This document shows, one piece after another, positions 23,800 through 28,671 of a DNA stretch of 43,304 nucleotides; positions within the stretch are counted from its first letter, which is position 1, and every line of letters begins with the position of its first letter. Source of the stretch: Methanoculleus thermophilus (GTDB lineage Archaea; Halobacteriota; Methanomicrobia; Methanomicrobiales; Methanoculleaceae); NCBI RefSeq assembly GCF_001571405.1, contig NZ_BCNX01000017.1, positions 1 through 43,304 on the forward strand, written 5' to 3'. The position numbers and the translations under genes were made by a program. The notes beneath the pieces were generated by a model. It had not been told where the DNA came from, did not search any database, and saw nothing but the letters and a program-made list of their open reading frames with translations.

Positions 23800-25299
23800 A
23801 TGATCCAGGTGCGGGGGAGCGGTATACTCCTGCATATCACGTCCCTGCCGTCAGAGTACGGCATCGGGGACTTCGGTCCGGCGGCATACCGGTTCGTGGA
23901 GGCGCTGGAGCAGGCCCGGCAGCACTACTGGCAGATCCTGCCGCTCAACCCGACACAGGCCGGATATGCTCATTCTCCCTACTCCAGCCCATCTGCGTTT
24001 GCCCTAAATACCCTCCTCATCAGCCCCGAGATGCTCGTCCGGGACGGACTCCTCAGGAAGAGTGAACTGGAGCCAGCTCCAGAGTTTTCGGAGCGGCGGA
24101 CGGCATACAAGGCGGCCGCGTGGTACCGGGAACGGCTCTTCTCGATGGCGTACAGGCGGTTCCGCGGTTCGGGGCCGGATCGTGAGTTCGAGACATTCTG
24201 CGACGCAAGCAGGTGGTGGCTCGACGACCATGCGCTCTTTGTCGCGCTTAAAGACCACTTCCACGGAGAGGCCTGGGACCGGTGGCCGGAGGAGATCCGG
24301 AGCCGGCAGCCGGAGGCTCTCAAGGAGATGCGCGAACTGCTTGAGGAACGGATACGCAAGGAGAAGTTCCTTCAGTACGTCGCCGCCCGGCAGTGGTCGG
24401 CCCTCCGTCGGCACTGCGCGAGGCACGGCATCCAGGTCATCGGCGATATCCCGATCTATGTCGCATACGACAGCGTCGACGTCTGGGCGAATCCGGGAAT
24501 ATTCAAACTGGACGAGAACCTCCGCCCGAACGTGGTGGCAGGGGTGCCTCCCGATATCTTCAGCAAGACCGGGCAGCTCTGGGGGAACCCGGTCTATGAC
24601 TGGCCTGTGCTCAAAAAGCTGGGCTACGACTGGTGGGTGCGTCGGATCGCCCGGTCAGGAGAGCTCTACGACCTCTTCCGGATTGATCACTTCCGGGCGT
24701 TCGCCGACTATTACGAGGTCCCGGCGGGGGATGCGACGGCCGAGCACGGCACCTGGGTCGACGGGCCGGGAGCCGACTTTTTTGAGACGCTTGCCCGGCG
24801 GTTCCCCTGCTTTGCCATCGTCGCCGAGGACCTCGGGGCGAACACTCCGGCCGTCCAGGCTCTTCTCGACCGGTTCGATCTGCCCGGGATGAAGATCCTC
24901 CTCTTCGCGTTCGGCGGGGGGATCGAAAAAAGCCCACATATCCCTCACAACTATGTCCCAAACCTCATCTGCTACACCGGGACGCACGACAACAACACAG
25001 CCCGGGGGTGGTTTGAAGAGGAGGCATCGGAGGAGGATAAGGCGCGGTTCTTCGCCTACATCGGGCGAAAGGTGGGGGCGGACGAGGTCCACCGGGAGCT
25101 CATCCGCCTTGCGATGACATCGGTTGCACGGGTCTGCATCATCCCCATGCAGGACCTCCTCGGGCTCGGATCGGAAGCGAGGATGAATTATCCATCGACC
25201 ACCGAAGGGAACTGGGTGTGGCGGATGACGCCGGAGGAGTTCGCCGGTGCGCCCTTCGAGTGGCTGCGAGGGTTGACGGAACTCACCGGGCGGGGGTGA
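23800..25299 (+). CDS. malQ: 4-alpha-glucanotransferase (amylomaltase, GH77)
   Basis: This enzyme transfers alpha-1,4-glucan segments in glycogen or maltodextrin metabolism. The GH77 series is complete: GSGILLHITSLPSEYGIGDF, WQILPLNPTQ, IPIYVAYDSVDVWANP, the nucleophile region FRIDHFRAF, the acid/base in VAEDLG, and the transition-state residue in YTGTHDNNT. The 499-aa length is typical. It has its own promoter (TATAAAAG at 23752). It lies back to back with the gluconeogenic block on the minus strand, in keeping with storage of carbon as glycogen. Confidence 0.96.
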   Translation: MIQVRGSGILLHITSLPSEYGIGDFGPAAYRFVEALEQARQHYWQILPLNPTQAGYAHSPYSSPSAFALNTLLISPEMLVRDGLLRKSELEPAPEFSERRTAYKAAAWYRERLFSMAYRRFRGSGPDREFETFCDASRWWLDDHALFVALKDHFHGEAWDRWPEEIRSRQPEALKEMRELLEERIRKEKFLQYVAARQWSALRRHCARHGIQVIGDIPIYVAYDSVDVWANPGIFKLDENLRPNVVAGVPPDIFSKTGQLWGNPVYDWPVLKKLGYDWWVRRIARSGELYDLFRIDHFRAFADYYEVPAGDATAEHGTWVDGPGADFFETLARRFPCFAIVAEDLGANTPAVQALLDRFDLPGMKILLFAFGGGIEKSPHIPHNYVPNLICYTGTHDNNTARGWFEEEASEEDKARFFAYIGRKVGADEVHRELIRLAMTSVARVCIIPMQDLLGLGSEARMNYPSTTEGNWVWRMTPEEFAGAPFEWLRGLTELTGRG

Positions 25300-25437: not shown

Positions 25438-25718
25438 TACGGATTCCCACTGGGCATCGCATTACAGGGGGGAGGGGACAGGGGAGTGCGAGCGAAGCGA
25501 GCTTGAGAAACTCGAAGAGTTTCGAGGGGGGAGCATCCCCCCTCACACCTAGCGGTGCTCACGCTCACTTTCGTTCGCGCCTCGCACCTAGCGGTGCTCA
25601 CGCTCACTTTCGTTCGCGCCTCGCACCTAGCGGTGCTCGAGCTCCGGTCCTTCGGACCGTCGCACTCCCCGTCAGCCCCACCCCCCAGCGCGATATCCTC
25701 ACGGTCCAGTGTATTGGG
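25438..25718. repeat. Hairpin-cassette island B
   Basis: This is the same type of intergenic island as A. Left flank TACGGATT..GGGCATCGCA and GGGGGGAGGGG, right flank CCCCACCCCCC and CACGGTCCAGTGTATTGGG, all in the same orientation as island A. The core (25478-25675) is reversed: ACAGGGGAG is now next to the left flank and CCCCGTCAG next to the right. Hairpins include GAAACTC-GAA-GAGTTTC (25507-25523), GGGGGGA-GCA-TCCCCCC, GCACC-TAGC-GGTGC and GGTCC-TTC-GGACC. Part of the core is tandemly repeated (separate entry). Confidence 0.9.
25546..25640. repeat. 39-bp tandem repeat inside island B
   Basis: A unit of 39 bp beginning CACCTAGCGGTGCTCACGCT starts at 25546, 25585 and 25624. The first two units are identical and complete and the third is partial (about 17 bp). 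Each unit contains a GCACC-TAGC-GGTGC hairpin, except that the first starts with ACACC. Island A lacks this expansion. There are no unique spacers, so it is not a CRISPR array. Confidence 0.9.
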
Positions 25719-25786: not shown

Positions 25787-25984
25787 TCAATACCTCGACG
25801 TCAGCATCTCAAGCTCTTCCCTGATGGTCCGGCGGATCATCTCCTCGATGGCCGTGTAGTCGCGCTTCGCCTTCTCCTGCTTCTTCAAGAGCTCTTCCAT
25901 CTTCATGATCCCGGCTGAGAGGTTCTTCCCGTACTTCAGGGCGACCTCCAGCGCCTCCTCGTCGATCCGGACGACCTTGGACAT
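25787..25984 (-). CDS. Small putative ribbon-helix-helix DNA-binding protein
   Basis: This is a 65-aa protein. The start MSKVVRIDEEALEVALKYGK fits a ribbon-helix-helix pattern: a short strand (KVVRI), helix A (about 9-17), a turn and helix B (about 21-35). After it comes a long charged helix (about 36-63) rich in Lys, Glu and Arg. The ATG lies about 26 bp from an AT-rich box on the minus strand (TTAAATTT, about 26006-26013), predicting a leaderless mRNA. The three operator-like sites just upstream make an autoregulated repressor a natural reading. The fold assignment is by eye; a structural or coiled-coil role cannot be excluded. Confidence 0.6.
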   Translation of the reverse strand: MSKVVRIDEEALEVALKYGKNLSAGIMKMEELLKKQEKAKRDYTAIEEMIRRTIREELEMLTSRY

Positions 25985-26014
25985 AGAAAGAAGATTTTCC
26001 GGGACGAAATTTAA

Positions 26015-26096
26015 TTGTTACAGATCTGTAACGGACTTGGCCGGGGTTGTAACAGATTTGTAACATTTTTGAGGGAGTTGTAACAATTGTGTTACA
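26015..26096 (-). promoter_or_regulatory. Three-site operator array upstream of the small regulator
   Basis: Three copies of a TTGTWACA..TGTAAC-type element begin at 26015-26016, 26047 and 26078, i.e. paired half-sites (26017, 26048, 26079) exactly 31 bp apart. The first is a perfect 16-bp palindrome, GTTACAGATCTGTAAC (26017-26032). The second has direct half-sites TGTAAC at 26048 and 26059. The third has TGTAACA/TGTTACA arms (26079-26096). The first site abuts the predicted TATA box of the 65-aa gene. A spacing of about three helical turns suggests cooperative binding on one DNA face. Confidence 0.75.
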
Positions 26097-26232: not shown

Positions 26233-28671
26233 TCACCGGGGCACCGGAACGGCCTCCTTCTCCTTTGCTAACCGCTCCTCGACCTCAGCCACGCGAAGAG
26301 TGATCTTTAAGAGTGCGTCGGGCTCGACCGATATCGAGTCGATCCCCTGCTCCACCAGGAAGTCGGCGAACTCCGGGTAGGTGCTCGGCGCCTCGCCGCA
26401 GAGCCCGCTGTGCCGCCCATTCCGCCGGCATCCTTCTACGGCCATCGCGACCATCCGCTTGACGGCCGGGTCGCGTTCGTCGAAGGCCTCCCCCACGACC
26501 GCCGAGTCACGGTCGATCCCGAGGACGAGCTGGGTCAAGTCGTTTGAGCCTATCGAGAACCCGTCGAAGTACTTGCTGAACGCGTCGATCTCAACGATGT
26601 TGCTTGGGATCTCGCACATCTGATAGATCTGCAGACCGTTCTCGCCTCGCCGAAGACCGTTCTTCTCGAGTTCCTCAATGACCCGCTTTGCCTCCTCCAC
26701 CCTGCGGCAGAAGGGGATCATGATGATCAGGTTCGTAAGCCCCATCTCATCTCTGACACGCTTGAGCGCCCGGCACTCGAGGCCGAACCCCTCCCGGTAG
26801 CGCTCATCGTAGTAGCGGGAGGCCCCGCGGAACCCGAGCATCGGGTTTGCCTCCTCCGGCTCAAAGTAGGCCCCACCAAGCAGGCTTGCGTACTCGTTGG
26901 TCTTGAAGTCGCTTGTCCGGACGACGACCGGGTTTGGGTAGAACGCGGCGGCAATGGTCCCGACGCCTTCGGCCAGTCTCTCGACGAAGTACTCCTCCCC
27001 GTCCGGGTATCCATAGACGAAGTCGGCGATCGCCTCCCGGACGGCCGTATCCTCGATCCGCTCGGGGTGGAGAAGCGCCATCGGGTGGATTTTGATGTAA
27101 CTGCTGATGATGAACTCCATCCGGGCAAGCCCGATACCGTCGTTCGGGACCATTGCAAGCCCGAAGGCCATATCGGGATTCCCGAGGTTCATCATCACCT
27201 CGGTCTTGGGCCGCCGCAGGTCGGAGAGCCGGATCTCTTCGACATGGTACGGGAGGCTGCCCTCGTAGATGAACCCCTCCTCCCCCTCGGCGCAGCTCAC
27301 CGTCACCTCCCGGCCCGTCGGGATCTTCTCGGTCGCGTCGCCCGTGCCGACGATTGCAGGGATGCCGAGTTCCCGGCTGACGATCGCGGCATGGGATGTC
27401 CGGCCGCCCCGGTTCGTCACGATGGCGGCGGCCGTCTTCATGACGGGCTCCCAGTCGGGGGTCGTGGTATCGGAGACCAGAACCTCCCCCGGCTTAAATT
27501 CCGGGAGGCGGCTGACGTCGGTGATGATCCGGGCCTTCCCGGCGGCAATCTTATCGCCGATGCTCTTACCTGCGGCAAGCACCGGCCCGCGTTCATCAAG
27601 GACGTAGGTTTCGAGGACGTCCCGCACCTTCTGCGAATGCACCGTCTCGGGCCGGGCCTGGACGACGAAGAGTTCATTGGTCTCGCCGTCCTTCGCCCAC
27701 TCGATGTCCATCGGGACCGGCTTACCAGCCTTCATCGAGTAGTGGTCCTCGATCGTGAGGGCGTATCCTGCGAGCGCAAGGATCTCGTCGTCGGTGATGC
27801 AGAACTTCCTTCGGTCCGATTCCGGGACATCGATCCTCCGGGTGACTTCTTTTTCACCTCCGTGAGCGTAGACGAGTTTCACCCGTTTCTCACCGAGGTT
27901 CTTCCTGATGACGGCCCGGTAGCCCTTCTTGAAGGTCGGTTTGAAGACGTAGAACTCATCGGGGTTGACGGCGCCCTGGACGACCATCTCGCCAAGGCCG
28001 TAGGACCCGGTGATGAGGACGACGTCCCGAAAACCGGTATCGGTATCGAGCGTGAAGATGACCCCGCTTGAGGCGAGATCGGAGCGGACCATCTTCATGA
28101 CCCCCACCGAGAGGGCGACCTTGAAGTGGTCAAAGCCGTTGTCCACCCGGTAGGCGATCGCCCGGTCGGTGAAGAGGGAGGCGAGGCACCGCGTGTAGGC
28201 CTCTCGCAGGGCCTGGTAGCCGCGGATGTTTAAGTACGTCTCCTGCTGGCCCGCAAACGACGCCGTGGGGAGATCCTCGGCGGTTGCGGAGCTCCTGACG
28301 GCGACGTCGGCATCGGGCCCGTATTCGTCGCAGAGCATATCATACGCAGCCCGGATCTCGTCCCAGAGGTCATCCGGGACCCCGGCGGAGAGGATCAGGT
28401 CGCGGGCACGCCTCCCTCTCCTGGCGAGATCGGTGACGTTGTTCCGATCAAGACCCCTAAGCGTCTCTTTGAGGTCATCGAGGATTCCGGCGGACGAGAG
28501 GACGTGCCAGTAGCCCTCTGCGGTCACGGCGAAACCGTCGGGGATCTTTACGCCCTTCGGCGTCAGTTCGCGGTACATCTCGCCGATTGATGCGTTCTTC
28601 CCCCCGACGAGGGCGATGTCCTCTGACCCGATATCGGCGAACCAGCGGATATAGGCCGCATCCTGTCTCAT
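26233..28671 (-). CDS. ppsA: Phosphoenolpyruvate synthase
   Basis: This enzyme makes PEP from pyruvate and ATP, the entry to gluconeogenesis from acetyl-CoA in methanogens. The N-terminal ATP-grasp domain (about 1-340) has LVGGKNASIGEM and VRSSATAEDLPTASFAGQQE. The swivelling phosphohistidine domain has GGRTSHAAIVSRELGIPAIV with the phosphorylated His. The C-terminal PEP-binding barrel has FSIGSNDLTQLVLGIDRD and GLCGEAPS with the catalytic Cys. The 812-aa length is slightly above the usual 750-800. The ATG overlaps the preceding dehydrogenase stop by 4 bp (ATGA), so it is the last gene of gapA-dehydrogenase-ppsA. Confidence 0.97.
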   Translation of the reverse strand: MRQDAAYIRWFADIGSEDIALVGGKNASIGEMYRELTPKGVKIPDGFAVTAEGYWHVLSSAGILDDLKETLRGLDRNNVTDLARRGRRARDLILSAGVPDDLWDEIRAAYDMLCDEYGPDADVAVRSSATAEDLPTASFAGQQETYLNIRGYQALREAYTRCLASLFTDRAIAYRVDNGFDHFKVALSVGVMKMVRSDLASSGVIFTLDTDTGFRDVVLITGSYGLGEMVVQGAVNPDEFYVFKPTFKKGYRAVIRKNLGEKRVKLVYAHGGEKEVTRRIDVPESDRRKFCITDDEILALAGYALTIEDHYSMKAGKPVPMDIEWAKDGETNELFVVQARPETVHSQKVRDVLETYVLDERGPVLAAGKSIGDKIAAGKARIITDVSRLPEFKPGEVLVSDTTTPDWEPVMKTAAAIVTNRGGRTSHAAIVSRELGIPAIVGTGDATEKIPTGREVTVSCAEGEEGFIYEGSLPYHVEEIRLSDLRRPKTEVMMNLGNPDMAFGLAMVPNDGIGLARMEFIISSYIKIHPMALLHPERIEDTAVREAIADFVYGYPDGEEYFVERLAEGVGTIAAAFYPNPVVVRTSDFKTNEYASLLGGAYFEPEEANPMLGFRGASRYYDERYREGFGLECRALKRVRDEMGLTNLIIMIPFCRRVEEAKRVIEELEKNGLRRGENGLQIYQMCEIPSNIVEIDAFSKYFDGFSIGSNDLTQLVLGIDRDSAVVGEAFDERDPAVKRMVAMAVEGCRRNGRHSGLCGEAPSTYPEFADFLVEQGIDSISVEPDALLKITLRVAEVEERLAKEKEAVPVPR

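What the first reader, a model, noticed from the sequence alone, without database searches (positions are those of the whole stretch)
25787..26096. Three operator sites, exactly 31 bp apart, before a small RHH-like gene
Half-sites GTTACA/TGTAAC occur in three pairs starting at 26017, 26048 and 26079, a strict 31-bp period (about three turns). The first pair is a perfect 16-bp palindrome abutting the TATA box of the 65-aa gene. The product looks like a ribbon-helix-helix protein with a helical tail. The combination fits cooperative autoregulation by a new small archaeal repressor. The ppsA gene, on the same strand, lies further upstream and so is unlikely to be controlled by these sites.
Basis: partly seen in the sequence, partly recalled or inferred. 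Interest (0 to 1): 0.66.

Follow-up and report, generated by a model that had tools for sequence, protein, structure and literature searches.

The report
Self-repressing gene switch in methanogens
A 65-residue protein gene in a Methanoculleus-type methanogen has six regularly spaced copies of a short DNA word directly next to its start signal, and this pairing of gene and DNA words is kept across four families of the order, so it is very probably an unnamed small repressor that switches off its own gene.

Summary
The 65-aa gene (25787-25984, -) is preceded by six symmetric TGTWACA elements (GTWAC cores at 26017, 26028, 26049, 26060, 26080, 26091): three pairs, 11 bp within each pair, pair pitch 32 and 31 bp. 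The 'strict 31 bp' comes from mixing GTTACA and TGTAAC starts. The perfect palindrome directly abuts the TATA box. An orthologue occurs in 76 of 232 Methanomicrobiales genomes, in four families, nearly always single-copy; 62 of 72 distinct upstream regions keep the array. Element columns are 97% conserved in Methanoculleus, spacers 64%. One GTWAC element abuts the TATA box in nearly all, but the array sits in two registers shifted by one pair; in the second, the last pair covers the inferred start site. In its own genome the array is unique; the only other pair lies elsewhere and alone. Best reading: cooperative autorepression by a ribbon-helix-helix-like protein that blocks TBP/TFB. Self-binding and repression are inferred, not shown. 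The fold is unproven: no Pfam, NCBIfam or PDB family match, and AlphaFold monomers were uninformative. Some relatives carry the array beside the next gene or in a convergent gap, or pairs at xerA, so the sites are not only self-operators.

The parts
25787..25984 (-). Gene of the 65-aa protein MSKVVRIDEEALEVALKYGKNLSAGIMKMEELLKKQEKAKRDYTAIEEMIRRTIREELEMLTSRY (putative ribbon-helix-helix-like autorepressor)
   Evidence: ORF; orthologues 78-92% identical with conserved start and stop in Methanoculleus; profile matches in 76 of 232 genomes of the order
26007..26014 (-). TATA-like box (TTAAATTT on the minus strand, positions -30 to -23 from ATG), implying a leaderless or nearly leaderless transcript
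   Evidence: sequence; TTAAAT/TATAAAT-type sequence directly after the -36 element in relatives
26017..26032 (.). Proximal pair, GTTACAGATCTGTAAC: GTWAC elements at 26017-26021 and 26028-26032, perfect palindrome abutting the TATA box and overlapping the expected BRE
   Evidence: unique in the genome
26049..26064 (.). Middle pair, GTAACAGATTTGTAAC: elements at 26049-26053 and 26060-26064
26080..26095 (.). Distal pair, GTAACAATTGTGTTAC: elements at 26080-26084 and 26091-26095
25995..26002 (-). Conserved CCGGAAAA between TATA box and start codon (-18 to -11), probably a proximal core-promoter element
   Evidence: phylogenetic footprint in 22 Methanoculleus-type upstream regions

Best explanation
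The 65-aa protein is the founding member of an unnamed family of small chromosomal DNA-binding proteins of Methanomicrobiales, very likely of the ribbon-helix-helix type with a third C-terminal helix. Homodimers bind the symmetric element TGTWACA, one dimer per element. Two dimers sit 10-11 bp apart on one face of the DNA as a tetramer, and three such tetramers lie in phase every three helical turns (31-32 bp). The pair that abuts the TATA box overlaps the BRE and keeps TBP/TFB off, so the protein represses its own gene and, in relatives, a gene directly downstream. Shown here: the array, its conservation, its fixed position relative to the TATA box, its co-occurrence with the gene, its near uniqueness in the genome. 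Inferred: that this protein is the one that binds, that binding represses, cooperativity, the fold.
For: Three pairs at 11 bp in the window against 0.025 expected. 72 distinct upstream regions hold 346 GTWAC in the last 120 bp against 17.2 after shuffling; 62 of 72 have three or more. In Methanoculleus the element columns have mean top-base frequency 0.97, spacer columns 0.64. Outside the window's own family (f1), strict arrays lie within about 250 bp of the gene in 39 of 48 genomes with the protein; any array-like match occurs in 6 of 144 genomes without it; Fisher p about 1e-25, not corrected for phylogeny. Where the array is upstream, an element lies at -34 to -42 directly before a TATA-like sequence in 24/24 f1, 21/21 f3, 2/3 f4 and 14 of the 16 f5 regions with an upstream array or a residual element at the promoter. 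In G081, f4 and f5 the whole array is shifted by one pair so that the last pair runs up to the ATG, which fits blocking rather than activation. The element is symmetric (T before 0.79, A after 0.81; centre A 0.58 or T 0.42), as expected for a two-fold symmetric dimer. Strand residues [S/T]2, V4 and R6 are conserved in all 36 family members, as is the DNA element.
Against: No binding or expression data. No Pfam, NCBIfam or PDB sequence match identifies the fold; both AlphaFold monomer models gave one long helix with low pTM (0.43, 0.41). In G114, G116 and G117 the array lies at another locus from the gene (in G114 and G116 clearly in a convergent intergenic gap), and in genus g19 it lies between this gene and the next. 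Some complete genomes of the same genus (for example G056) lack the gene.
Confidence: 0.77

Rival explanations
1. The array is an operator, but it is read by another regulator, or it activates: a different protein binds TGTWACA upstream of the TATA box and recruits TFB/TBP to the gene.
For: In Methanoculleus and in f3 all three pairs lie upstream of the TATA box, a position also used by archaeal activators (own knowledge).
Against: The array follows this one gene through four families with different neighbours, and is rare where the gene is absent. In the shifted register the last pair covers the inferred start site and ends at the ATG. The own genome has no second array of this type, unusual for a general activator.
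Confidence: 0.11
2. The array is a chromosomal recognition site (centromere-like or genome-organising) and self-repression is a by-product, as in plasmid partition systems with ribbon-helix-helix centromere-binding proteins.
For: Essentially one array per genome. In G116 and G114 a three-pair array (degenerate in G114) is kept in a convergent intergenic gap far from the gene. GTWAC pairs also lie upstream of the XerA-type recombinase gene in seven f5 genomes.
Against: No ParA/SegA-type gene stands out beside it (neighbours not exhaustively annotated). Distance from the main orc1/cdc6 gene (mean 0.39 of the genome) is not clearly different from that of xerA (0.355) in the same 15 genomes. The array is locked in register to the TATA box in most genomes.
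Confidence: 0.07
3. The protein is an antitoxin-like component: a small DNA-binding protein with a conserved C-terminal tail that also binds a partner protein encoded downstream, orphaned in Methanoculleus.
For: In f5 a metallophosphoesterase-domain gene and in f3 an Asn_synthase-domain gene follows directly, mostly within 0-60 bp on the same strand; the C-terminal tail is strongly conserved.
Against: The partner is a different enzyme in each family and neither is a classical toxin fold; Methanoculleus has no partner but keeps the tail.
Confidence: 0.05

Closest known systems
[quoted passage not shown] review PMC5569661)
   Same: Small archaeal protein; sites are repeated short elements in or next to promoters including its own.
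   Different: F55 sites are ATAGATAG tandem repeats and it is a viral lysogeny regulator with several promoters; here a chromosomal gene, TGTWACA pairs every 31-32 bp, essentially one promoter. No sequence match was found in phage or viral collections.
SvtR and AvtR (archaeal viral ribbon-helix-helix repressors; PMC5569661)
   Same: Repress their own gene by occluding BRE/TATA; AvtR/RHH proteins described as spreading as oligomers along DNA.
   Different: Consensus sites differ; no detectable homology by profile search.
E73 of SSV-RH, 'RH3' fold (PMC5569661)
   Same: 73-aa protein with strand plus three helices; our family shows a strand-like start and three helix-like segments separated by proline-tolerant or indel-rich gaps.
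   Different: No sequence similarity found; E73 showed only non-specific DNA binding.
CdrS (short ribbon-helix-helix regulator linked to ftsZ2 in haloarchaea; cited in PMC12284271)
   Same: Small chromosomal euryarchaeal DNA-binding protein.
   Different: The own genome has a separate RHH_1-family 62-codon frame next to a tubulin/FtsZ-like gene (L178), so the 65-aa protein is something else.
SegB of Sulfolobales (ribbon-helix-helix partition protein; PMC12284271)
   Same: Binds sites in front of its own operon as well as chromosomal sites.
   Different: Motif TCTAGASTCTAGA at about 40 scattered sites, with a SegA ATPase partner; here one array and no such partner seen.

Membership tests
Ribbon-helix-helix (MetJ/Arc/CopG) superfamily | Sequence match to a curated RHH family | tested here: not met
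   No RHH family passes a cut-off in Pfam or NCBIfam, 36 members and two consensus sequences scanned; other proteins of the same genomes do match RHH_1. Only a weak DUF6290 hint (E 0.085).
Ribbon-helix-helix (MetJ/Arc/CopG) superfamily | Strand-helix-helix chain fold, intertwined dimer | tested here: inconclusive
   AlphaFold monomers gave one long helix, pTM 0.43 and 0.41, from shallow alignments and without a dimer; but proline at position 20 in 13 of 36 sequences and indels at 35-40 argue against one helix and for the RHH segment pattern. Profile comparison with RHH sequences aligned the 'S-x-G-I-R' helix start only, probability 31%.
Ribbon-helix-helix (MetJ/Arc/CopG) superfamily | Tandem symmetric sites bound by adjacent dimers on one DNA face | tested here: met
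   DNA side only: symmetric TGTWACA, 10-11 bp apart in pairs, pairs every 31-32 bp, conserved in four families. Binding itself not tested.
Autorepressor | Binds its own promoter and lowers its own transcription | not testable with these tools
   Only the comparative architecture is available.
Type II antitoxin | Co-transcribed toxin gene of a known toxin family | tested here: not met
   Downstream genes are Metallophos/Metallophos_2 or Asn_synthase proteins or absent.
Partition (centromere-binding) protein | Adjacent ParA/SegA-type ATPase gene | tested here: inconclusive
   Three neighbours on each side in 55 loci were clustered; the large conserved clusters read by sequence are not ParA-like, but not every neighbour was annotated.

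The most novel reading that the evidence does not exclude
The protein-array pair is a chromosome-maintenance module of methanogens: a small DNA-binding protein with one phased, centromere-like array per chromosome that usually sits in its own promoter but can move to other places (convergent gap near pycA, xerA upstream region) and still be kept.
Probability: 0.07. Interest if true: 0.75.

Novelty: new member of a known kind. Interest (0 to 1): 0.42.

Why it matters
It defines an unannotated regulator family with a readable DNA code in an order of methanogens for which few regulators have a known site. The array is TATA-phased and comes in two natural registers, so it gives a clean test of how a small repressor blocks TBP/TFB at a leaderless archaeal promoter. 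The genomes in which the array has moved away from the gene give natural experiments on what else the protein does.

Tried and rejected
Terminus location: the gene looked far from the main orc1/cdc6 (mean 0.39 of genome length, 0.25 expected), but xerA in the same 15 genomes gave 0.355, so this was dropped. Regulon in the own genome: pattern scans found nothing beyond this promoter except one 10-bp-spaced pair on contig C7; the first 400 bases of its locus, up to about 1.1 kb from the pair, look like ABC-transporter coding sequence; not counted as a target. Fold by sequence: Pfam, NCBIfam, PHROGs and PDB searches gave only chance hits (helical designed proteins, dihydrodipicolinate reductase). 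Fold search of those models was not run, as a single helix would match anything. malQ as a position control failed, because it is found only in Methanoculleus. Mobile origin: no match in phages, plasmids or viral contigs. Literature: five searches found no paper on this protein or motif.

Full report
WHAT IS THERE. The window is contig C17 of a 2.2-Mb genome whose closest named relatives in the search are Methanoculleus. A 65-aa reading frame lies on the minus strand at 25787-25984, 248 bp after the end of ppsA (26233-28671, -) and convergent with malQ (23800-25299, +). The 248-bp gap holds six GTWAC elements starting at 26017, 26028, 26049, 26060, 26080 and 26091. They form three pairs with exactly 11 bp between elements; the gaps between pairs are 21 and 20 bp, so the pair pitch is 32 and 31 bp. 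No other GTWAC pair of this kind exists in the window; a first-order simulation gives 0.025.

THE ELEMENT. Over 346 elements in 72 distinct upstream regions the consensus is T-GTWAC-A (T 0.79 before, A 0.81 after; centre A 0.58, T 0.42). It is its own reverse complement apart from the centre, so each element is a symmetric site, not a half of one. This is what a two-fold symmetric dimer binding one element would need, with two dimers 10-11 bp apart.

CONSERVATION. The 18 nearest orthologues (78-92% identical over full length; the eighteenth, L018, is cut by the contig end) all carry the same array in front. In 22 aligned Methanoculleus-type regions, element columns have a mean top-base frequency of 0.97 and spacer columns 0.64. 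A profile finds the protein in 76 of 232 genomes of the order, in families f1, f3, f4 and f5, nearly always single-copy, and not in f2 or f6; a wider class search added no other lineage. Distant members are about 37-59% identical to the window protein. Of 72 distinct upstream regions, 62 have three or more elements. Of the ten others, four (G103, G105, G107, G108) have the array between this gene and the next, three (G114, G116, G117) have an array at another place, and three (G104, G119, G120) have lost it; G119 and G120 keep one element, the one before the TATA box. Outside f1, strict arrays are near the gene in 39 of 48 genomes with the protein, against any match in 6 of 144 without it (Fisher p about 1e-25, uncorrected for shared descent).

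REGISTER AND MECHANISM. In nearly all regions with an upstream array, one element starts at -34 to -42 from the start codon and is followed at once by a TATA-like sequence (GTAACAATTAAAT, GTTACTTATAAAT, GTAACATTTATC). In most f1 and all f3 members the three pairs extend upstream from there. In G081, f4 and f5 the array is shifted by one pair: two pairs upstream of or at the TATA box and one between the TATA box and the ATG, ending at the ATG itself. With the TATA box about 25-30 bp before the ATG the transcript should be leaderless or nearly so (inference from the usual archaeal TATA-to-start distance). A pair that overlaps the BRE, and in the second register a pair on the start site, fit blocking of TBP/TFB/polymerase; the review of archaeal viral RHH regulators describes exactly this promoter occlusion (PMC5569661). 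Within-pair spacing is 11 bp in f1 but 10 bp in f3-f5, while the pair pitch stays 31-32 bp: overall helical phase is kept although local spacing changed.

THE PROTEIN. The family alignment (36 members) has invariant V4, R6, Y18, S23, M29, R51 and [S/T]2. Proline is allowed at position 20 (13 of 36) and indels or Pro/Gly at 35-40, so the chain reads as strand 2-7, helix 9-18, helix 23-35, helix 43-60 (inference). This is the ribbon-helix-helix order with a third helix, as in E73. I therefore say that it works like an RHH autorepressor and do not file it as a proven member.

NEIGHBOURS. In f5 the gene is usually followed by a roughly 420-aa protein with a metallophosphoesterase domain, in f3 by a roughly 330-aa Asn_synthase-domain protein. 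In f1 it stands alone. In genus g19 the array lies between this gene and the phosphoesterase gene, right before the latter's start. So the controlled unit changes while protein and sites stay.

LOOSE ENDS. In G116 a full three-pair array, and in G114 a degenerate one, lie in the convergent gap between an upstream gene and pycA, with no remnant of the small gene; G117 has the same array behind the same aminotransferase gene at a contig end. In seven f5 genomes (G104, G105, G106, G108, G109, G119, G120) two to four isolated pairs, mostly 120-250 bp apart, lie upstream of a XerA-type recombinase gene; in G119/G120 they sit in repeats of about 215-235 bp. G106 and G109 lack the protein in their assemblies. 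Nothing of this kind is at xerA in the own genome. These cases show that the sites can be kept or gained away from the promoter of the gene, and are the main reason for the novel reading.

VERDICT. A real, highly conserved, previously unnamed protein-operator pair; most likely an autorepressor of a known kind. Interest moderate.

Noticed in passing
L206 (G119), L207 (G120), L208 (G104), L210 (G109), L211 (G106), L229 (G108), L230 (G105): Isolated GTWAC-N5-GTWAC pairs upstream of the XerA-type recombinase gene in two genera of f5, in G119/G120 within tandem repeats of about 215-235 bp; possible second target or recombinase-related repeats.
   Followed up: partly
L146 2510-2604 (G116), L147 2484-2570 (G114), end of L205 (G117): Three-pair array (degenerate in G114, cut by the contig end in G117) between an upstream gene and convergent pycA, unlinked to the small gene.
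   Followed up: partly
L203 2685-2756 (G114:C9) and L204 2429-2500 (G116:C33): Two GTWAC pairs 57 bp apart around the palindrome GATCACAAATTGTGATC, followed by repeats of 'GGTGGTCAAAAG'; looks like a regulatory or mobile-element region shared by two genomes.
   Followed up: no
window 25535-25625: Short tandem repeat 'CACCTAGCGGTGCTCACGCTCACTTTCGTTCGCGCCTCG' downstream of malQ, about two and a half copies.
   Followed up: no
window 25995-26002 (-): Conserved CCGGAAAA between TATA box and start codon in Methanoculleus, possibly a proximal promoter element.
   Followed up: partly
L151 (G037:C243) 2494-2540: Two GTWAC pairs downstream of the gene that often precedes the small gene in f3, but the small gene is absent and an ATPase-like gene stands there; possible relict array.
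   Followed up: partly
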